This document shows positions 11,945-41,358 of a stretch of 45,233 bases of DNA, one piece after another. The stretch comes from a virus. Positions within the stretch are counted from its first letter, which is position 1. Each line of letters opens with the position of its first letter. A program made the translations under genes and the position numbers. The notes under the pieces are model-generated. The model did no database searches, was not told where the DNA came from, and saw nothing but the letters and a program-made list of their open reading frames with translations. The stretch covers positions 1-45,233 of the IMG/VR virus record IMGVR_UViG_3300029258_002017; one strand, written 5' to 3'.

Positions 11945-13515
11945 AAAACCTGGCAGACCGCATTATCGCCTACTTTTCTCCCCAACGGGCCATTCAACGA
12001 CACTTCTACCGCAGCAAACTGGCCAAGCTCCGCCTTCGATCCGATGCCTACGCAGCCAGCAAAACCAACCGCATGACAGGGGCCTGGTCCGCAACCGATG
12101 CCAATGTCAACACGATCCTCAAAAACTCCGGCCCCACCGTGCGCAACCGGGTCCGCCAACTGGTGCGTGATTTCCCCTACTTTGCCCGGGCCGTCAACGT
12201 CATGGTGGACTACACCGTGGGCCAGGGCATCCTGTTTCAAAGCCGCGTCGATTTTCCCGATGGGGGCCTCAATAAACGCGCTATTCAACAGATTGAAGAC
12301 GCCTTTTCATTTTGGGCCGACGAGGCCGATGTGGCCCGAAAGCTCCATTATTACGAGTTGATGCAGCTCGCCAAGCGACAGGATGTCGAGACCGGCGAGT
12401 TTCTGTTGGTCAAGACCCAGCCCCGCAACAAATCGGCCTACCTCCCCTTTGCCCTTCAGATCTATGAGGCCGACTGGCTGACCGATCTTCACGCCCAGGC
12501 CGCGTCCCCGGCCAACGAGGTGGACCAGGGCATCGAGTACAACACAGCCACTGGCGAGATCATGGCCTATCATTTTTCCGATCCCGACGGGTGGGGCAAG
12601 GCCCAGCGCATTCCGGCCGATCGCGTGATGCATCACTTTCAGACGCTTCGACCGGGGCAGTTGCGCGGCATTTCTCCCTTTGTCGCCGGGGTCCTGGTGG
12701 CCCACGACCTGGGCGACTACATGGACACCGAGATGGATGCAGCCAAAATGGCCGCCAAATATCTCACCTTCGTCAAGACCCCCAATGCATACGAACGTCA
12801 ATATGGCCGCGTCGAAACGGATACCGACACGGACCAGCAGATCGAGACCATGGAAAACGCCATTATCGAATACCTCAATCCTGGCGAGGATATCGAGATC
12901 GCGTCCAATCCTCGGCCCGGCAGCAATTTTCCCCCCATGGTCAAGTTGGTGCTGACCATGCTGTCGGTCTCGACCGGCGTCCCCTATGAATTGCTCTCCG
13001 GCGACTATGCGGGGATGAATTACAGCACCTCGCGCACGGTCCGCAACGATTTTGCCCAGCAGCTTCGCCCCATCTGCGTTCGCCACATTCGCCATTTTTG
13101 CCTGCCCACGCTGCGGGAGTTTATGGACATGGCCGTCTTGACCGGCAGGCTGTCGCTTCCCGGGTATTACGCCAACCCGGCCCCATGGCTCAAATCCGAC
13201 TGGCAGCCGCCCGGTATGGAGTCCATCGACCCGCTCCGCGAGGTCAAGGCCCGCATCGATGAGGTGAGCTTTGGATTGCGGTCCCCCCAGGAGATTGCCC
13301 GGTCCCGAGGCAGAGACCTCGAAGAGGTTTATAGAGAAATTGCCGCCGCTAACAGCCTGGCCGAGGAGCTGGGTCTCGACTTTACCCAAACCCCGGCCAC
13401 CGGCGTTCACAACAACCCGGCGGCCATTACAGGAGAATCAGAAGATGCCGAAGAACAAGACAAAGCCGACCGAACCAGAAGGGCTCACCTGTCGCAGCTT
13501 CGCGCTGTCCGTTGA
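11941..13515 (+). CDS. Portal protein, lambda family
   Basis: A 524-residue lambda gpB-type portal that forms the ring through which DNA enters and leaves the head. Recognisable features are the N-terminal RNRVRQLVRDFPYFARAVN segment, the VDYTVGQGI strand, GEFLLVKTQPR, the RPGQLRGISPF region, and the C-terminal VPYELLSGDYAGMNYSTSR typical of the family. It overlaps the gpW-like gene by 4 nt. Its last 71 nt overlap the start of the protease-capsid gene. Length and position are typical. Confidence 0.95.
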   Translation: MKNLADRIIAYFSPQRAIQRHFYRSKLAKLRLRSDAYAASKTNRMTGAWSATDANVNTILKNSGPTVRNRVRQLVRDFPYFARAVNVMVDYTVGQGILFQSRVDFPDGGLNKRAIQQIEDAFSFWADEADVARKLHYYELMQLAKRQDVETGEFLLVKTQPRNKSAYLPFALQIYEADWLTDLHAQAASPANEVDQGIEYNTATGEIMAYHFSDPDGWGKAQRIPADRVMHHFQTLRPGQLRGISPFVAGVLVAHDLGDYMDTEMDAAKMAAKYLTFVKTPNAYERQYGRVETDTDTDQQIETMENAIIEYLNPGEDIEIASNPRPGSNFPPMVKLVLTMLSVSTGVPYELLSGDYAGMNYSTSRTVRNDFAQQLRPICVRHIRHFCLPTLREFMDMAVLTGRLSLPGYYANPAPWLKSDWQPPGMESIDPLREVKARIDEVSFGLRSPQEIARSRGRDLEEVYREIAAANSLAEELGLDFTQTPATGVHNNPAAITGESEDAEEQDKADRTRRAHLSQLRAVR

Positions 13516-15517
13516 CCGGCGGGGAATCCCCCAGACCGTCAACGATGATGAGCGAACCGTCGAGGTCGTGGCCACCACCGAGGCCCCGGCGGAGGTATTC
13601 GACTGGCAGCGGTTCGAAGTGGTGCGCGAGGTCCTGCTGACCTCCGGCATGGAATTGCCCGAGAGCGGCCAGGTCCCCCTGCTAAACGCCCACAACCGGT
13701 ACGACATCGGGGATGTCATCGGGTCGTTTCGCAACATTCGCACCGAGCCGGACCGAATCGTAGGCCGCGTTCAGTTCAGCCAGGCCGCGGCCGATGCGTT
13801 CACCAAGCTGAAAGAGGGGCATCTCACCGATTTTTCGGTTGGATACCGCGTCACCAAAAGCCAGTGGGTGCCCGAAAACGAACAAGCCGAGATTCAGGGG
13901 AAGACCTACGCCGGCCCCCTGCGCGTATCCACCCAATGGCAGCTAAAGGAGCTGTCGGCCGTACCCATCGGCGCCGATCCGCAGGCCAAGGCCCGAGCGG
14001 AACATTATACCACACCCAACGATACACAGGAGGACAGTACTATGGAAAAACGATTGCGACAAACCCTCGAAGCCCGGGGCCTGCCCAAGGATGCGACGGA
14101 TGAGGAGGCGTGGGCCTACCTGGACACCCTCACCTCTCCAGATTCCGCAGGGAGGTCTGAGCCTGCTCAGGACCCGCCCCAAGCCAGTATCCCGCCCGTC
14201 GATGTTCGACAGGCCGCCATCGCCGCCGAACGAGACCGCATTCGAGAGATCACGGCCATGTGTGCGCGATTTGACCTGGCTGACATGGCCCAGGCTATGG
14301 TCGATGCAGGAACGTCCGTTGATCAGGCTCGCAAAGAGGTAATGGAGGCCGCCCTGGCCAAACGAACCAGCGAGCCGCCCGATATCGGGTATCGCGGCCC
14401 TCGCGTCGAGATGATCGCCGATGAGCGCGACAAGTTCCGCGCCGCCTCCATCGATGCGGTCCTGCTTCGCGCAGGGTCTCAGGTGGCCGCCCCGGCCCCC
14501 GGCGCCCAGGAGCTGGCAGGCTATTCCCTGCGAGAACTGGCCCGCCATTGCCTACGCATCAACAGCCTCAAGGAGACCGGCCAGCCCATGGAGATGGTCG
14601 GAAGGGCGCTTACTACCTCCGATTTCCCCTACATCCTGGCCAATGTGGCCAACAAGGCCCTGTTCGACGGGTTCGACACCGCCGAGGAAACATGGGCCGA
14701 GTGGTGCGGGGTCGGCAGCGTCCCGGATTTCAAAACCAACTACCGGCCTCGCGCCTCCGAGGCGTCCGACCTGGATGAGCTCCCCGAGGGGATGGAATAC
14801 AAGTACGGCGACCGGACCGAGACTCAGGAGAGCTTCAGCATCGCCACCTACGGAAAAATGTTTGCCATTACGCGGCAGACCATCATCAATGACGATCTGG
14901 GGGCCTTGACCAACATTCCGCAAATGCACGGCGAGGCAGCGGCCCGCAAAGTGGGCGATGTGGCCTATGCCATCCTGACCGCCAATGCGGCCATGGGCGA
15001 CGGAGTTTCCCTGTTCGACGCATCCACCCATAACAACTACGTCGCCAGCGGGTCCGGCGCCGTCCCCGGCATTGCCACCATCGCGGCTGGCATCCTGGCC
15101 ATGGGCACCCAAAAAGACCTCCAGGACCTGAGGCGTCTCAACATTCGCCCCCGGTTTTTCATCAGCCCCAAGGCCCTCGAAGGGACCGCCGAGGTGTTTT
15201 TTCGCTCCGAGCGGTTCACGGACAGCGACACTGTCGGAACAGACTCGTCCCTGGCAGGAACCCGGGTCAACCCCTATGCAGGCAACTATTTTACCCGCGT
15301 CTACGATGCCCGCCTGGATGACAACGATCCGGCAGAGTGGTATCTGGCGGCCGCCAAGGGAAAGACCGTTATCGTCTACTTTCTCAACGGGAACCAAAAA
15401 CCCTTCATGGAATCCAAAGAGGGGTGGAACGTGGACGGGGTCGAGTACAAGGTCCGCATCGACTGCGGGGCCAAGGCCATGGACTGGCGCGGTCTGTACT
15501 GCAACAACGGCAATTAA
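13445..15517 (+). CDS. Fused prohead protease / major capsid protein
   Basis: A 690-residue fusion. Residues about 1-185 are an HK97-type prohead protease: the candidate catalytic His83 lies in LLNAHNR and Ser131 in DFSVGY. Residues about 200-690 are the major capsid protein, with a helical scaffold-like delta region (200-310) and an HK97-fold coat domain (TSDFPYILANVANKAL onward). The start at 13445 has CAGGAG upstream; the longer frame overlaps the portal and is unlikely. A perfect internal ribosome site at 14028-14033 precedes an in-frame ATG at 14042 (Met200), so the coat protein is probably also made on its own. The protease would trim the scaffold-like segment during maturation. Confidence 0.93.
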   Translation: MPKNKTKPTEPEGLTCRSFALSVDRRGIPQTVNDDERTVEVVATTEAPAEVFDWQRFEVVREVLLTSGMELPESGQVPLLNAHNRYDIGDVIGSFRNIRTEPDRIVGRVQFSQAAADAFTKLKEGHLTDFSVGYRVTKSQWVPENEQAEIQGKTYAGPLRVSTQWQLKELSAVPIGADPQAKARAEHYTTPNDTQEDSTMEKRLRQTLEARGLPKDATDEEAWAYLDTLTSPDSAGRSEPAQDPPQASIPPVDVRQAAIAAERDRIREITAMCARFDLADMAQAMVDAGTSVDQARKEVMEAALAKRTSEPPDIGYRGPRVEMIADERDKFRAASIDAVLLRAGSQVAAPAPGAQELAGYSLRELARHCLRINSLKETGQPMEMVGRALTTSDFPYILANVANKALFDGFDTAEETWAEWCGVGSVPDFKTNYRPRASEASDLDELPEGMEYKYGDRTETQESFSIATYGKMFAITRQTIINDDLGALTNIPQMHGEAAARKVGDVAYAILTANAAMGDGVSLFDASTHNNYVASGSGAVPGIATIAAGILAMGTQKDLQDLRRLNIRPRFFISPKALEGTAEVFFRSERFTDSDTVGTDSSLAGTRVNPYAGNYFTRVYDARLDDNDPAEWYLAAAKGKTVIVYFLNGNQKPFMESKEGWNVDGVEYKVRIDCGAKAMDWRGLYCNNGN
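14028..14044 (+). promoter_or_regulatory. Internal ribosome site and in-frame start for capsid
   Basis: AGGAGG (14028-14033), 8-nt spacing, ATG at 14042 in the frame of the fusion gene, precisely at the junction between the protease and capsid parts. Expected product about 491 aa. Confidence 0.75.
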
Positions 15518-33790: not shown

Positions 33791-35389
33791 ATGAACAAAA
33801 AACAATTATCCACCCTCTGTTCCTCTGCGCCTCTGCGCCTCTGCGCGATCATCTGCGCTGTACTCGTTGCCGCCCTGCTGATCGCCGCCCCGCCTGCCCT
33901 GGCCAAATACGACGGAAGCCTCGGCTGGTATGGGGTATCCTGGAACCAATCCACTGACAGCTATTCCCGCCGCGGCGATCTGGTGGATTTTGCCGCCGCT
34001 GCCAGCCCGGGCGACGACTACCTGCCCGTGCAACGCCTCATGCGCCGCTGCGTGATGAACGACTCTGGCGTGGTGGTTTATTACCTGGACCCAACAGACT
34101 CGACTAAGAAGTACAATGGGGCCAGCGCCAGCCTCGACGGGACCGACGGTCAGGTGATGGTCGAGATCCCCAAATTTTATATCCGCACCAGCTACAGTTC
34201 CAACGTCCACTCGTGGGACATCTCCCTGACCCCCCGCGACGGGTTTTTCCCACACCCCGCATTTTACAAAGACGGGGCCTGGGTGGACTACCGCTACATG
34301 GGGGCCTACGAGGGGAGCTTGTGGGACGACGACACCACCGCTATGTACTCTGATGCGGACGCCGTGACAGCCGACACCTACGACGATGGAGATAAGTTGT
34401 GCAGCATTACCGCCCAGTGTCCCAAAACAAATGAGACCCGCGCTGAGTTCCGGGAGGCCGCCAGCGACAGAGGCGCAGGCTGGCGCAATCAGGAGTATGA
34501 CATTACAACCGCTGTGCAACTGCTCTACCTGGTCGAGTACGCGGATTTTGATTCGCAGTCCATGATCGGCAAGGGGCGCACCATGTTTTCCTCCGGCGCG
34601 TGGACAGTAGCCGGGACCGGAGTCGGCGACTACATCGGCCGCACCGGGTACAGCAACAGTTATGGCAATGCAACAGCCACCTACCCAGCGATGGGCAGTC
34701 AACGGTCATCTGCTCTGGACATATCTGCCATAGATACATCACAGGCGGCCTATTGTGATTTTGTGTCGTATCGAGGCATTGAAAATTTCTACGGGAACGT
34801 GTGGCAATGGGTGGACGGCATCAATGTGGGCCTGGCTGGCACGCACGACGGCGGGGATAACGAGGCCACCGTTATGACCGACAGCGGCGAGTCCTGGCCG
34901 ACGAACAGCCTAATCGGCGCCACCATCACAAATACGACCGACAGCAGCTCGGGCACGATCACCGCCAACACCGGCACGACCATCACCGTCGCGTCGCTGA
35001 GCGGCGGAACGGACAACGACTGGGATACCGGCGATGCGTTCGTGGTCAGCAACATTGTCTGGCTGTGCAGCAATGAGGCCAATTTTGCCGACGATGCCTA
35101 CACTAACTATGATGCCCTGTACGATACCAGCGGAGACCGGGCCGTACTGCACAATGCCGACGGATATGCCGGAGCGCTGGAGCAGATTTACACCGGCTTT
35201 TTGGCGACGGATGTGACCGGGTCGAGCACAACCAAGGTTTGCGATTACTATTACCAAGATACTGGGTGGCGTGTGGTCGGCTTCGGCGGGGCTGCGGGTA
35301 GCGCGTCGGCTGCGGGTGCGTTCTGCGTCTCTGCGGGTAGCACGTCATCGTATGTCCATGCGGCTATCGGCGGGCGGCTCTGCTATTAA
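33791..35389 (+). CDS. DGR target protein, C-type-lectin/FGE-like, exported
   Basis: A 532-residue protein. Residues 1-38 look like a Sec signal peptide: basic MNKK, a long hydrophobic core, and ALA before K39; a strong AAGGAGG precedes the start. The mature part has tail-protein features (RRCVMNDSGVVVYYLDPTD; MVEIPKFYIRT). The C-terminal domain has GNVWQWVDG and ends TGWRVVGFGG...IGGRLCY, the hallmark of the formylglycine-generating-enzyme-type C-lectin fold used by DGRs. A copy of the SW....G / TIT.NTGTTITV beta module interrupts this domain (about residues 352-420). The last 40 residues are the variable repeat. Only the signal peptide is atypical for a phage tail receptor-binding protein. 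Confidence 0.93.
   Translation: MNKKQLSTLCSSAPLRLCAIICAVLVAALLIAAPPALAKYDGSLGWYGVSWNQSTDSYSRRGDLVDFAAAASPGDDYLPVQRLMRRCVMNDSGVVVYYLDPTDSTKKYNGASASLDGTDGQVMVEIPKFYIRTSYSSNVHSWDISLTPRDGFFPHPAFYKDGAWVDYRYMGAYEGSLWDDDTTAMYSDADAVTADTYDDGDKLCSITAQCPKTNETRAEFREAASDRGAGWRNQEYDITTAVQLLYLVEYADFDSQSMIGKGRTMFSSGAWTVAGTGVGDYIGRTGYSNSYGNATATYPAMGSQRSSALDISAIDTSQAAYCDFVSYRGIENFYGNVWQWVDGINVGLAGTHDGGDNEATVMTDSGESWPTNSLIGATITNTTDSSSGTITANTGTTITVASLSGGTDNDWDTGDAFVVSNIVWLCSNEANFADDAYTNYDALYDTSGDRAVLHNADGYAGALEQIYTGFLATDVTGSSTTKVCDYYYQDTGWRVVGFGGAAGSASAAGAFCVSAGSTSSYVHAAIGGRLCY
33813..33849 (-). repeat. Dispersed CGCAGAG repeat inside signal peptide
   Basis: CCTCTGTTCCTCTGCGCCTC onward: an inverted copy with an extra CCTCTGCG unit. 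It is read in frame as TLCSSAPLRLCAI, the front of the signal peptide's hydrophobic core. Confidence 0.8.
35266..35378 (+). other. DGR variable repeat (VR)
   Basis: Matches the template at 35459-35571 without gaps. It encodes the last residues of the target (WRVVGFGG to IGGRL). Over 112 nt it differs from the template at 17 sites. At 16 of these the template base is A (9 A to G, 4 A to C, 3 A to T); the exception is C35472 to G. The altered codons change 14 residues. Confidence 0.95.
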
Positions 35390-35440
35390 CGTCAACACGC
35401 CGCGCGCAGCGCGCAACACGCAGCACGCGCGCGACAAAAC
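35390..35440. other. GC-rich inverted repeat downstream of VR
   Basis: GCGCGC-A-GCGCGC at 35402-35414 and a further CGCGCGC near 35427-35433, just after the target stop. In known DGRs a hairpin/cruciform right after VR helps mark the homing site; this element is in the right place for that. Confidence 0.5.
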
Positions 35441-35458
35441 CGTGAAATGGTCCCGGTC

Positions 35459-35571
35459 GTGGCGTGTGGTCCGCTTCGGCGGGGATGCGGATAGCACGAC
35501 GACTGCGGGTGCGTTCTACGTCAATGCGAATAACACGTCATCGAATGTCAATGCGAATATCGGCAGGCGGC
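35459..35571 (+). other. DGR template repeat (TR)
   Basis: The invariant template copied into the VR. It is 193 bp downstream of the VR in the same orientation and 140 bp upstream of the RT start. It is rich in AAT, GAT, ACG and AAC codons in the VR frame. Of 23 adenines in 35459-35570, 16 differ in the VR and 7 are unchanged. The non-coding stretch on to the RT (35572-35710) holds a perfect 14-bp palindrome at 35661-35674 (CCTGCCATGGCAGG) and would be part of the template RNA. Confidence 0.95.
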
Positions 35572-35710
35572 AAGGCTTATTTCAAACAGTTCAGGTTTTT
35601 GGGAGGCCGGGACCCTGCCCCTTGGCAAAACACAAAGCAAAGCCCCATCGGTGCTGGTAGCCTGCCATGGCAGGTCGAACGTTCCGGGGCGAAATAAGCA
35701 GAGGGCAACA

Positions 35711-36775
35711 ATGAAACGATACGGAAACCTGTATCCCAACATGTGCGATCCGCAAAACATCCTGGCCGCCCACCTGGCTGCCCGCCGGGGCAAGGGCCAT
35801 TACCGCGAGGTCAAGATGGTGGATGCCGATCCGGAGCGCTATCTGGATAAAATCAGGGATATGTTGGTCAACAAGATATTTGTGAATGCTCCCTACAAGG
35901 TGTTTACCAAAACGGATCAGCGCAAAAACCGGGTGATCCACAAGCTGCCCTACTATCCGGACCGGATCGTTCACCATGCGGTTGTGCAGGTGCTGGAGCC
36001 GATCTGGATGGCCGGGTTTATCCCCACCACCCTGGCATGCATCAAGGGCCGCGGCATTCACACAGGGGCGCGCCAGATTAAGCATGCTATCCATGCTGAT
36101 CCGGACGGAACCCGGTATTGTCTCAAAATGGACGTCAAACAATTCTACCCCAGCATGGACCACAAGGCGCTGCTGGGCATGCTGGCGAGAAAGATCAAGG
36201 ACCCGGACGTGATGTGGCTGTTGAGCGAGATCATCGATTCCACACCGTCTCCGGGTCTGCCCATCGGCAACTACCTGAGCCAGTATTTTGGCAATGTGTA
36301 TTTGTCTGGGATCGACCATTATGTCAAGGAGTCGCTGGGGTGCAAGCACTACTGGCGCTATTGCGACGACATGGTGATCCTGGATGGCGACAAGGCCCGG
36401 CTGCATGGGTTGCGCCGGGATATCGACGAGGCCCTGGGAGAGATCCGCCTGACCATGAAGGCCAACTGGCAGGTGTTTCCGGTATCTGTGCGCGGACTGG
36501 ATTTTATGGGGTACCGGTTTTTTGGCGGATACACCCTGCTGCGCAAAACAACGGCAACCCAGTTTAAACGGGCCATGGCCAGGATCAAGCGATGCTGGCG
36601 CCGTATGCGGCCCATCAGTGTAGTGAGCACGGTCATGAGTTATTATGGCTGGATGACACACGCTAACTGTTTGCATTTGTGGCATGCCTATGTTGACGAT
36701 CAGATCCGGGACATCCTGGCGACAGTGTGTCGAACGGCCGGGATACGCAACCCCATGAAAAGGAGGTTTGCGTAA
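35711..36775 (+). CDS. DGR reverse transcriptase
   Basis: A 354-residue RT of the diversity-generating retroelement group, which copies the TR RNA into cDNA with errors at adenines. Motifs: catalytic Asp141 in KMDVKQFYPSMD; IGNYLSQ at 185-191, the DGR form of motif 4 that replaces the QG of other RTs; YCDDMV with Asp219 and Asp220; and the later FMGYRFFGG and WMTHANCLHLW thumb region. The N-terminus (NLYPNMCDPQNILAAHLAARRGKGH) is also typical. The start at 35711 follows AGAGGG; an earlier in-frame ATG at 35651 lies in the template RNA region. Its stop touches the start of the next gene. Confidence 0.97.
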   Translation: MKRYGNLYPNMCDPQNILAAHLAARRGKGHYREVKMVDADPERYLDKIRDMLVNKIFVNAPYKVFTKTDQRKNRVIHKLPYYPDRIVHHAVVQVLEPIWMAGFIPTTLACIKGRGIHTGARQIKHAIHADPDGTRYCLKMDVKQFYPSMDHKALLGMLARKIKDPDVMWLLSEIIDSTPSPGLPIGNYLSQYFGNVYLSGIDHYVKESLGCKHYWRYCDDMVILDGDKARLHGLRRDIDEALGEIRLTMKANWQVFPVSVRGLDFMGYRFFGGYTLLRKTTATQFKRAMARIKRCWRRMRPISVVSTVMSYYGWMTHANCLHLWHAYVDDQIRDILATVCRTAGIRNPMKRRFA

Positions 36776-37105
36776 ATGGGAGATGGCATCACGGTGCTGG
36801 CAGACAAGCGCAAACCGCGGTTTTCGGAGTTCGCCGACGAAAAGCCCCCGCTGGAGGGCGATAAGCTCAAGATAGACGACATTTTAAATCAGGAGGTGGA
36901 GCTGATCGATTTCAGAATTGGCCGTACCAAGTACAGCAAGAACCAGTCGGGCAAATATATCACGCTCCAGATCCGAAAAGACGGGATGTTGCATGTGGTA
37001 TTTACGGGGAGCGACGTACTAATCAGTCAGGCAATGAAATACGCGGAACATGTCCCGTTCTTGGTCACCATTAAGAAAATCAACCGTTATTACACCATGA
37101 CATAA
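36776..37105 (+). CDS. Small beta-rich protein coupled to DGR RT
   Basis: A 109-residue protein starting MGDGITVLAD at the base after the RT stop, with AAGGAGG inside the RT 3' end. The core has alternating strands (EVELIDFRIGRTKY, KYITLQIRKDGMLHVVFTGS, VPFLVTIKKINRYYTM) and looks like an OB-type fold with basic and aromatic residues, suggesting nucleic-acid binding. It is not like Avd, the helical bundle that usually partners DGR RTs. Direct coupling suggests a role in retrohoming; this is inference. Confidence 0.7.
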   Translation: MGDGITVLADKRKPRFSEFADEKPPLEGDKLKIDDILNQEVELIDFRIGRTKYSKNQSGKYITLQIRKDGMLHVVFTGSDVLISQAMKYAEHVPFLVTIKKINRYYTMT

Positions 37106-37120
37106 CGAAAGGAGATCATT

Positions 37121-37441
37121 ATGAAAAACGCATTGATCATCATCGTAACCGTTGCATGCGCCGCACTGTTTGTCTCGCCGTCCATGGCCGCTGACCATCC
37201 GGGGGCCGACTACGCCTGGGAATACAGCTCGTATGCCATGCCTGAAACCGGCGTCACCCGGGGCCAGAAAATATTCCGGTGGGCCAGCGAATCATTTGTC
37301 AATGACGATGGCGACACCATCTATCGGTGCAAATACGTGTGGACAGGCACCGGCAAACAGGACCCAGTCAAAACTATGATCCAGACGAAATATCCGTCGG
37401 AAAAAAGCGTTGATGATTTGGTTAAAGATGTTGAAAAATAA
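37121..37441 (+). CDS. Small exported protein
   Basis: A 106-residue protein with a clear Sec signal peptide (MKNALIIIVTVACAAL, cleavage likely after SMA at residue 23). The mature part is about 83 residues, aromatic-rich (DYAWEYSSYAMPETG, KYVWTGTG) with no known motif. Good GAAAGGAG before the start. Like the DGR target it would go to the periplasm or surface, so it may be a lysogen-expressed accessory (moron) or partner of the target. Confidence 0.75.
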   Translation: MKNALIIIVTVACAALFVSPSMAADHPGADYAWEYSSYAMPETGVTRGQKIFRWASESFVNDDGDTIYRCKYVWTGTGKQDPVKTMIQTKYPSEKSVDDLVKDVEK

Positions 37442-38354: not shown

Positions 38355-38735
38355 ATGCATACCGTAATCGACTGGACTCTGTTGGGGACAGTAATCGCTG
38401 TAGCTGGAAGTGTAATCGCCGGAATCAAAGCATACGGTCGGCATGAAGAGAAAATCGATCAGCATCAAAGGGCCATAGATGCCTGTCACATGGAGGACGT
38501 GATGACAGCTCCAAAGTGTGAAAAAACTCACGAAGCTACCAGGAATCAGTTTCAGTCCGAGCTGCGGCAGTATCAAGATTTGAGCATGGCGAACTTGAAG
38601 CCATTGGTAGAAGATGTGGCCGAACTCAAGAGCGACACAAAACAAATCTCTAAAGACCTGACAGAGCTTCGCCTCCAGCTATCCGGCATCATGGGGCAGA
38701 TCACAACGATGACGTCTAAAGGAGAGATGAGATGA
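38355..38735 (+). CDS. Membrane-anchored coiled-coil protein
   Basis: A 126-residue protein with one N-terminal membrane segment (about residues 6-26, WTLLGTVIAVAGSVIAGI) followed by long charged helices (HEEKIDQHQRAID; EDVAELKSDTKQISKDLTEL). The shape resembles XhlA-type or spanin-like phage lysis proteins. AAGGAAAGGA lies upstream. It overlaps the receiver-domain gene by 4 nt (ATGA). Confidence 0.68.
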   Translation: MHTVIDWTLLGTVIAVAGSVIAGIKAYGRHEEKIDQHQRAIDACHMEDVMTAPKCEKTHEATRNQFQSELRQYQDLSMANLKPLVEDVAELKSDTKQISKDLTELRLQLSGIMGQITTMTSKGEMR

Positions 38736-39145
38736 CTATCAGAACGGGGGTTAAGGCGAAACGAACTATCCTGGCAGTAGATGATGAAACACCCTGGCTC
38801 GATGTGTTATGCCGGACATTGAACAAATGGAATTACACTGCCGTCTGTTTTCCGACAGCACGAGAGGCGCTGGATGTGTTCCCGTCCATCCGGCCATTCC
38901 TTGTGCTTACCGACTTGAGACTGACGAACCACATCGACGGCGCAACGATGGCAGCTAAGATGCACATGCAGGACCCGATGTGTATTTTCATTGCAATCAG
39001 CGGCTTAGTCTCAACGTGGGATCTGGGCTTTCTGCTCGGGAGCGTATTCACGGACGTGCTGAACAAGCCAATAGATTTTAATGTACTCAAACAGGTGACA
39101 AATTACGCCTGGGAGAAGAGGCAGCGGTGGGAGCAGTTGATTTAG
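38732..39145 (+). CDS. CheY-like receiver-domain protein
   Basis: A 137-residue single receiver domain. All key residues are visible: acidic pocket D17/D18 (ILAVDDE), phosphorylation site D61 (VLTDLRL), S90 in the switch position (IAISG), and K112 in NKPI. No output domain follows; the tail is a short charged helix. It is unusual inside a phage lysis block, coupled at both ends to lysis-type genes (4-nt overlap upstream, 19-nt overlap downstream). It may read or interfere with a host histidine kinase, or be a captured host gene. Confidence 0.88.
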   Translation: MTIRTGVKAKRTILAVDDETPWLDVLCRTLNKWNYTAVCFPTAREALDVFPSIRPFLVLTDLRLTNHIDGATMAAKMHMQDPMCIFIAISGLVSTWDLGFLLGSVFTDVLNKPIDFNVLKQVTNYAWEKRQRWEQLI

Positions 39146-39546
39146 ACCTTCAATCAGTTGATGAATTCGATCTGCTTGTGGCCTGCCTACGCGGTGAGGC
39201 TGAGGGTGAGCCGTTCATGGGCAAACTCGCCATTGCCTGCGTTATCCGCAACCGGGTTAAGGACAAGCGCTGGCCGGACACCTACCGGGGCGTCATGTTG
39301 CAGCCATATCAGTTCTCTTGTTTTTTGCCCCAGTATTTTAGGCCGCAAACACTGAAGCACGACTGGGATAAAAGCTATTGGAAAGAGTGCAACTTCGCAG
39401 CCTTTGGGGTTTATCACGATTGGGTTCGGGACATCACTGGCGGAGCGAATCACTATCACGCCTTCGGGGTGCATCCGAAATGGGCTGATGACATGGAGCG
39501 GGCAGACATCAACATTGCAGGGCATCATATATTTTATAAGGGATGA
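39127..39546 (+). CDS. SleB/CwlJ-type cell-wall hydrolase (endolysin)
   Basis: A 139-residue hydrolase of the SleB family. Motifs: LVACLRGEAEGEPFMGKLAI with the conserved glutamate, AIACVIRNRV, and GVMLQPYQFSCF, all standard for the family. There is no signal peptide, so release depends on the holin. The start is GTG at 39127 inside the receiver gene, with AGAGGC upstream; no in-frame ATG precedes the domain. It degrades peptidoglycan at lysis. Confidence 0.9.
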   Translation: MGAVDLDLQSVDEFDLLVACLRGEAEGEPFMGKLAIACVIRNRVKDKRWPDTYRGVMLQPYQFSCFLPQYFRPQTLKHDWDKSYWKECNFAAFGVYHDWVRDITGGANHYHAFGVHPKWADDMERADINIAGHHIFYKG

Positions 39547-40908: not shown

Positions 40909-41358
40909 ATGGACCTGACAGGCATTGGCAGCGTGTTTGATTTTGCCAAAGGGATCGTGGACCGGATCTGGCCCCCCGACGCCGACCCAACAGAGAAGGC
41001 CAAGGCGCAACTGGCACTGCAACAAATGATCGAGCAGCGCGAAACCCAGATTATAGAGGCCCAGAAATCGATCATTGTCAGCGAGATGAACCAAGGCGAC
41101 GCCTACACAAAACGCGCCCGACCCACCATCGTATACGCCGGCCTGGCATTCATTTTCCTGGTCAACGTGGTTTTCCCTCTCCTGGCCTGGGCCACCGCGC
41201 TGAGCACAGGCAAACCCCTCGCCGACATCCCCCACATCACCCTCCCCGGCGAGTTCTGGGCCGCCTGGGGAGGGGTCTGCAGCATCTGGGTCATCGGCCG
41301 CAGCGCCGAAAAACGCGGCGCCGCCAACAAGGTCACCAACCTAATTACCGGAACATAA
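40909..41358 (+). CDS. Holin, 3-TM type
   Basis: A 149-residue protein. The N-terminal FDFAKGIVDRIWPPDADPTEKAKAQL is the hallmark of the 3-TM holin family shared with gene transfer agents. Then come a helix with E/Q, ARPTIVYAGLAFIFLVNVVF as a membrane segment, a second hydrophobic stretch, and GRSAEKRGAANK at the C-terminus. It forms inner-membrane lesions that release the endolysin. AGGAGG lies upstream. It is the last gene before attP. Confidence 0.88.
   Translation: MDLTGIGSVFDFAKGIVDRIWPPDADPTEKAKAQLALQQMIEQRETQIIEAQKSIIVSEMNQGDAYTKRARPTIVYAGLAFIFLVNVVFPLLAWATALSTGKPLADIPHITLPGEFWAAWGGVCSIWVIGRSAEKRGAANKVTNLITGT

What the first reader, a model, noticed from the sequence alone, without database searches (positions are those of the whole stretch)
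33791..37105. Complete diversity-generating retroelement on a siphophage
Target, VR, TR and RT are all present in order. TR and VR align without gaps from 35459/35266. Over 112 positions there are 17 differences, and 16 are at TR adenines (A to G 9, A to C 4, A to T 3); only C35472 to G is not. The RT has IGNYLSQ and YCDD. Adenine-specific substitution into a C-lectin C-terminus is the defining mark of a working DGR, as in Bordetella phage BPP-1. 16 of the 23 TR adenines in the aligned span are changed, so the VR has been well mutagenised.
Basis: partly seen in the sequence, partly recalled or inferred. Interest (0 to 1): 0.95.

Follow-up and report, generated by a model that had tools for sequence, protein, structure and literature searches.

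The report
Avd-less phage diversity-generating retroelement
This tailed phage carries a genuine diversity-generating retroelement, a known kind of machine that rewrites one end of a tail-type recognition protein by error-prone copying at adenines; the part worth a second look is that its usual helper protein is missing and a small conserved protein and a folded RNA sit beside the copying enzyme instead.

Summary
TR 35459-35571 and VR 35266-35378 align without gaps over 113 nt with 17 differences, 16 at TR adenines (hypergeometric P 3.5e-13). The RT falls on the DGR side of a tree against group II introns. The target matches the C-lectin DGR variable protein TaqVP by profile and by fold. In close relatives with the same TR and RT, 235 of 257 VR differences fall at TR adenines, so this class is active in nature; activity of this copy was not tested.

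Beyond the finding: no Avd, HRDC or MutS-like gene was found. The TR-RT spacer (35611-35702) is Rfam RT-17 RNA, with 12 of 16 pairs showing double-sided compensatory change. The ORF after the RT (36776-37105) belongs to a family with no Pfam or PDB match, OB-like by prediction. In 45 genomes chosen for carrying it, all 49 copies lie just 3' of a DGR RT; it is fused to the RT in 11 loci. It is a strong candidate accessory protein, possibly one already proposed in a 2018 survey I could not read. The target and a second downstream protein both carry signal-peptide-like N-termini, a pairing that recurs in relatives and hints that the diversified protein may be exported.

The parts
33791..35389 (+). 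DGR target gene, 532 aa, tail-type protein with C-lectin variable domain
   Evidence: phrog_5302 tail protein E 3.8e-90; TaqVP 5vf4 by profile E 1.9e-4 and Foldseek E 5e-7
33791..33904 (+). signal-peptide-like N-terminus of the target (about 38 aa, ends ...PPALA)
   Evidence: heuristic; only 3 of 50 window genes score; inference, no dedicated predictor run
35266..35378 (+). variable repeat (VR)
   Evidence: ungapped match to TR, 16 of 17 differences at TR adenines
35365..35386 (+). candidate IMH, G+C-rich VR 3' end up to the stop codon
   Evidence: position by analogy with BPP-1; inference from sequence
35401..35413 (+). weak G+C-rich hairpin after VR (5-bp stem)
   Evidence: in the set as a whole stems of 6 or more follow VR in 30 of 182 against 5 of 182 shuffled
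35459..35571 (+). template repeat (TR), 23 adenines
   Evidence: single TR/VR pair in the record
35611..35702 (+). structured spacer RNA, Rfam RF03020 (RT-17), between TR and RT
   Evidence: 54.5 bits over a gathering score of 40.4; covariation in relatives
35711..36775 (+). DGR reverse transcriptase, 354 aa from ATG 35711 (GTG 35651 would lie inside the RNA)
   Evidence: phrog_1423 E 4e-121, 8ub7 E 6.6e-38, tree
36776..37105 (+). orfA, 109 aa, candidate DGR accessory protein with OB-like predicted fold
   Evidence: next to or fused with DGR RTs; AF2 pLDDT 88.8; no Pfam family
37121..37441 (+). orfB, 106 aa, conserved tail-module protein with signal-peptide-like start
   Evidence: homologues in 112 loci; signal peptides paired with those of the target

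Best explanation
A complete phage diversity-generating retroelement of an Avd-less type. TR is transcribed with the RT message (inferred). The RNA just after TR folds into the RT-17 structure and recruits the RT (structure shown by covariation, recruitment inferred by analogy with the BPP-1 spacer). The RT copies TR with errors opposite adenines (shown by the substitution pattern and by relatives), and the cDNA replaces VR in the target's 3' end, varying the binding face of a C-lectin domain (fold supported, binding role inferred). orfA, encoded directly after the RT, is most likely an RT partner that handles the template RNA or the single-stranded cDNA in place of Avd (association shown, activity inferred).
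For: TR/VR pattern P 3.5e-13. 182 of 222 distinct related loci show an adenine-only TR/VR pair; the same search with C, T or G as the free base gives 0, 0 and 14. 16 distinct VR pairs with identical TR and RT at least 98% identical: 235 of 257 differences at TR adenines, where adenines are 28% of TR. DGR RTs against group II: one branch, SH-aLRT 100. RT-17 hit in the spacer, and RT-17-like matches in 8 of the 9 first relatives. 65 of 84 places with the RT-17 core sequence in viral contigs have a DGR RT starting 71-208 nt downstream. Covariation: 91.2% of cells paired against 74.7% shuffled and at most 49% when slid; 12 pairs with double-sided change. 72 of 79 bacterial DGR loci carry the element just before the RT, 60 of them at E below 0.01 (three of these or near copies helped build the model). 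orfA: 75 of 80 viral loci have the RT nearby, in 74 of them upstream; 49 of 49 copies in 45 genomes lie within about 520 nt 3' of an RT; 11 RT-orfA fusions, 84 of 128 overlapping or within 30 nt.
Against: Nothing contradicts DGR. For this copy activity is untested. No experiment links orfA or RT-17 RNA to cDNA synthesis. orfA's OB reading rests on a predicted model whose PDB matches are weak (best E 0.045). About half of the viral RT relatives lack orfA, so it cannot be essential to all DGRs; three orfA loci with room upstream have no RT. The 45 genomes were chosen because they hold both genes. The RNA model does not find the BPP-1 spacer.
Confidence: 0.9

Rival explanations
1. A DGR that is real but no longer active: TR, VR and RT are relics of past activity.
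For: No reads of this phage were available; a single non-adenine difference is present.
Against: All three coding ORFs are open, catalytic YCDD is intact, the spacer RNA is conserved above the Rfam threshold, and 16 of 23 adenines are changed with only one other change, meaning little neutral drift since the last homing. Relatives are active.
Confidence: 0.08
2. orfA and the spacer RNA are bystanders: orfA is a tail-module or replication gene that happens to follow the RT, and RT-17 RNA is a regulatory leader of the RT message rather than part of the template RNA.
For: orfB and other tail-module genes also sit there; RT-17 ends within a few bases of the RT start; some relatives lack orfA.
Against: orfA is fused to the RT in 11 loci and has no copy away from an RT in 45 genomes. 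The RNA keeps a fixed place between TR and RT (median 116 nt from TR to RT), where in BPP-1 the spacer recruits the RT (PMC12875486).
Confidence: 0.15
3. Ordinary direct repeat or point-mutated duplication without a retroelement.
For: 85% identical direct repeat.
Against: Adenine restriction, P 3.5e-13, an adjacent DGR-type RT, and the same layout in about 180 relatives.
Confidence: 0.01

Closest known systems
Bordetella phage BPP-1 DGR (mtd, avd, TR, brt)
   Same: Order target-VR, TR, RT; adenine-specific TR to VR change; C-lectin target in a tail module; RT homologous
   Different: BPP-1 has Avd (PF22296, E 2e-37) and no orfA; the window has no Avd and has orfA plus RT-17 RNA, which the model does not find in BPP-1
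ANMV-1 archaeal virus DGR (PMC4372165) and Caudoviricetes vir525
   Same: Tail target, RT, and an orfA homologue directly after the RT, annotated only as hypothetical protein
   Different: Distant relatives (44-45% identity in orfA; RTs on separate branches); RNA element only weakly recognisable in ANMV-1 (E 0.16, right place)
Rfam RF03020 RT-17 and RF03021 RT-18 RNA families
   Same: The window spacer is a full-length RT-17 match; RT-18 fits the same place in L010 and L306
   Different: The Rfam names seen here say only 'RT-17 RNA' and 'RT-18 RNA'; here they are placed between TR and RT of DGRs. I could not read the original description (Weinberg 2017), so this link may already be known
Known DGR accessory proteins Avd, HRDC, MutS-like (MSL), and one further protein without a Pfam domain (survey cited in PMC10053308)
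   Same: Small gene overlapping or next to the RT
   Different: orfA matches none of PF22296, PF05635, PF00570 or PF01624 (the window record as a whole also lacks PF05635 and PF22296). It may be the fourth, Pfam-less protein of that survey; not comparable here
TaqVP, Thermus aquaticus DGR variable protein (5vf4)
   Same: Profile and fold match over the target core and C-lectin domain
   Different: About 15% identity; the window protein adds a signal-peptide-like start and a low-confidence stretch at about 350-420

Membership tests
Diversity-generating retroelement | TR and VR near-identical repeats differing at TR adenines | tested here: met
   16 of 17 differences at A, P 3.5e-13
Diversity-generating retroelement | VR in the 3' end of a coding gene, TR non-coding near the RT | tested here: met
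   VR ends 8 nt before the target stop codon; TR ends 139 nt before the RT start codon
Diversity-generating retroelement | RT of the DGR clade | tested here: met
   tree against group II, SH-aLRT 100; retron and Abi RTs not included in the tree
Diversity-generating retroelement | C-type lectin (or Ig) variable domain | tested here: met
   TaqVP by profile and Foldseek
Diversity-generating retroelement | TR stays fixed while VR varies in populations | tested here: inconclusive
   met for relatives; no reads or near-identical genomes of this phage
Diversity-generating retroelement | IMH and IMH* with hairpin after VR | tested here: inconclusive
   G+C-rich VR end and a weak 5-bp stem
BPP-1-type DGR with Avd | Avd gene (PF22296) | tested here: not met
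   absent in the window record; BPP-1 positive control E 2e-37; the record may be incomplete
Rfam RT-17 RNA | covariance-model score over the gathering threshold | tested here: met
   54.5 against 40.4 bits, positions 1-95 of 95
OB-fold nucleic-acid-binding protein (orfA) | five-stranded barrel with helix between strands 3 and 4 | tested here: inconclusive
   predicted order fits; PDB matches weak, several OB domains among them
OB-fold nucleic-acid-binding protein (orfA) | binds single-stranded nucleic acid | not testable with these tools
   needs purified protein
DGR accessory protein without Pfam domain (2018 survey) | sequence identity with that family | not testable with these tools
   paper not held

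The most novel reading that the evidence does not exclude
A DGR subtype in which Avd is replaced by an OB-like protein (orfA, sometimes fused to the RT) acting with an RT-17 spacer RNA, and which in this phage and several relatives diversifies a Sec-exported protein, paired with an exported partner (orfB), instead of a cytoplasmically assembled tail tip. The diversified protein would then act in the periplasm or on the surface of the infected cell.
Probability: 0.25. Interest if true: 0.75.

Novelty: new member of a known kind. Interest (0 to 1): 0.45.

Why it matters
DGRs are well surveyed (over 30,000 in PMC8144416), so one more is ordinary. What would matter: the BPP-1 system is, to my knowledge, the only one dissected in depth, and it depends on Avd. 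This locus and about a hundred relatives point to a second solution with a gene that annotation leaves as hypothetical and with an RNA family whose role is not stated in what I could read. Both are directly testable, and an RT-orfA fusion would be a compact starting point for a reconstituted system. If the exported-target reading held, it would be a new use of a phage DGR.

Tried and rejected
Avd hidden in the window: PF05635 rings nowhere (a poor query, since BPP-1 Avd is PF22296), then PF22296 with BPP-1 as control: absent in the window, one sub-threshold match with internal stops among relatives. Second VR: none. RNA element in BPP-1: no match in its spacer even with filters off. Single-sequence folding of the spacer: not better than shuffles (z 0.28), so the structure claim rests on covariation alone. 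orfA in orfA-less relatives by profile search: 6 more found, 72 remain without; many of those have tail-chaperone-like ORFs instead (the tail-chaperone naming is my reading of the sequences). orfA against Pfam, PHROGs and PDB: only phrog_19665, unknown function. Literature on RT-17, Rfam and DGR, CH1 or MSL: nothing that settles it was held. Near DNA match to known phages: none.

Full report
Observation. I recomputed the TR/VR alignment. The offset is 193, the span 113 nt, with 17 differences of which 16 are at TR adenines (A>G 9, A>C 4, A>T 3) and one is C35472>G. Given 23 adenines in 113 positions this has P = 3.5e-13, and no difference is at a VR adenine. All changes fall at codon positions 1 and 2. 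The single odd change lies 5' of the first TR adenine. There is no second VR. The record is an IMG/VR virus contig of 45,233 bases with primase, terminase, portal, protease-head, tape measure and J-like genes, so the siphophage reading is fair.

Is it a DGR? The RT's best solved relative is 8ub7 (E 6.6e-38, next 3e-14); the list calls it only 'Reverse transcriptase', and that it is the BPP-1 bRT is my own knowledge. In a tree of 59 RTs the DGR RTs, including BPP-1, ANMV-1, LBR48 and crAssphage LMMB, are separated from five group II RTs by a fully supported branch, and the window's nearest relative is L021 at 64% identity. L021 and L258 come from a contig of the same length (49,124 bases), which in the genome collection is part of a deltaproteobacterial MAG, and the L258 RT matches that viral contig at 100%. 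Retron and Abi RTs were not in the tree. The target's profile finds one PDB sequence, TaqVP (5vf4, E 1.9e-4), and its model (mean pLDDT 76.6) has TaqVP as the only strong Foldseek match (E 5e-7, probability 1.0). TaqVP is a C-lectin DGR variable protein (PMC6328139, abstract).

Is this class active? Of 222 distinct loci with a related RT, 182 have a repeat pair whose differences are confined to adenines, allowing one break. The same search with C, T or G as the free base finds 0, 0 and 14. Among loci with identical TR and RT at least 98% identical there are 16 distinct VR pairs: 257 differences, 235 at TR adenines, where adenines make up 28% of TR. These pairs are not all independent, since several come from one group of five contigs. 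I found no near-identical genome of the window phage itself.

Spacer RNA. Between TR and RT lies a full-length match to Rfam RT-17 (54.5 bits, gathering score 40.4). On its own the sequence does not fold better than shuffles, so I relied on comparison. On 27 spacers RNAalifold predicts 15 pairs, 12 of them with double-sided changes. Counted on the structure I wrote down by eye from the alignment (it has the same 15 pairs plus one), 91.2% of cells pair (shuffled 74.7%, slid versions at most 48.8%), 72 cells have changes on both sides (shuffled 19), and no shuffle of 500 reaches these values. A covariance model from these finds the element just before the RT in 72 of 79 bacterial DGR loci, 60 at E below 0.01; two of the training sequences are in that set and a third is a near copy. 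A DNA pattern for its first hairpin, scanned over viral contigs, gave 84 places; 65 have a DGR RT starting 71-208 nt downstream. In BPP-1 the corresponding spacer folds and recruits the RT-Avd complex, and a spacer adenine primes cDNA synthesis (PMC12875486). I infer the same role here. The model does not find the BPP-1 spacer and finds the ANMV-1 spacer only weakly (E 0.16, at the right place).

Accessory protein. Avd (PF22296) is absent from the window and, apart from one sub-threshold match with internal stops, from the relatives searched; BPP-1 rings at 2e-37. The contig may be incomplete, but the relatives agree. The gene directly after the RT, orfA, is conserved. Of 80 viral loci found by orfA alone, 75 carry the RT nearby: in 74 it lies upstream of orfA, in one (L086) downstream. 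Of the five without, two have hardly any upstream sequence, and three (L084, L091, L094) have room and no RT. In 45 bacterial genomes chosen for having both, the whole-genome search finds 49 orfA copies and every one lies within about 520 nt 3' of a DGR RT. In 128 distinct loci, 84 overlap or lie within 30 nt, 29 lie 31-600 nt away, 3 lie upstream, one further off, and 11 are single RT-orfA proteins. More than half of the viral RT relatives show no orfA (49 of 78, some of them cut short), and many of those carry tail-chaperone-like ORFs there instead. No Pfam family is shared by more than two of 88 members, and PHROGs knows it only as phrog_19665 of unknown function. The AlphaFold model (pLDDT 88.8) has strands, a helix and strands in OB order, and PDB matches are weak but include several OB domains. 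I conclude that orfA is very probably a DGR component; that it binds nucleic acid and stands in for Avd is inference. A 2018 survey proposed an accessory protein without a Pfam domain (as cited in PMC10053308); it may be orfA, and I could not check.

Signal peptides. A simple heuristic flags 3 of 50 window genes, two of them the target and orfB, which flank the DGR. Over 59 distinct related loci with both genes, five have signal-peptide-like starts on both and 54 on neither, none on one only (Fisher p 2e-7). Reading by eye adds L054 as concordant and L110 as discordant. The bearers sit in several separate places of the RT tree, so the rows are not fully independent but the pairing recurs. The heuristic also flags 19 of 326 other long ORFs. 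An exported target would, to my knowledge, be unusual for a tailed phage; a hydrophobic anchor used in virion assembly is not excluded.

Verdict. The DGR is real and ordinary in kind. The additions (orfA, the placed RT-17 RNA, the paired signal peptides) raise the interest moderately; their priority over earlier work is unsettled, which is why I rate novelty as a new member of a known kind.

Noticed in passing
33791-33904 and 37121-37189: Signal-peptide-like N-termini on both the DGR target and orfB; the pairing recurs in relatives (5 both, 54 neither, 0 discordant in the profile-found set; L110 discordant by eye).
   Followed up: partly
L270, L275, L298, L314, L317, L318, L319, L322, L327, L335, L098: orfA fused to the C-terminus of the DGR RT in one open frame.
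   Followed up: yes
38732-39145: Response-regulator receiver-like protein (weak NCBIfam matches, best E 6.5e-8) encoded by the phage near the lysis genes.
   Followed up: no
39127-39546: SleB-type (spore cortex-lytic enzyme) domain match, E 1.5e-14, probably the phage endolysin, near a holin at 40909-41358.
   Followed up: no
L084, L091, L094: orfA-like stretches with no DGR RT in up to 5 kb upstream; possible orphans or remnants.
   Followed up: partly
13271-15517: Head maturation protease and major head protein appear joined in one 748-aa ORF.
   Followed up: no
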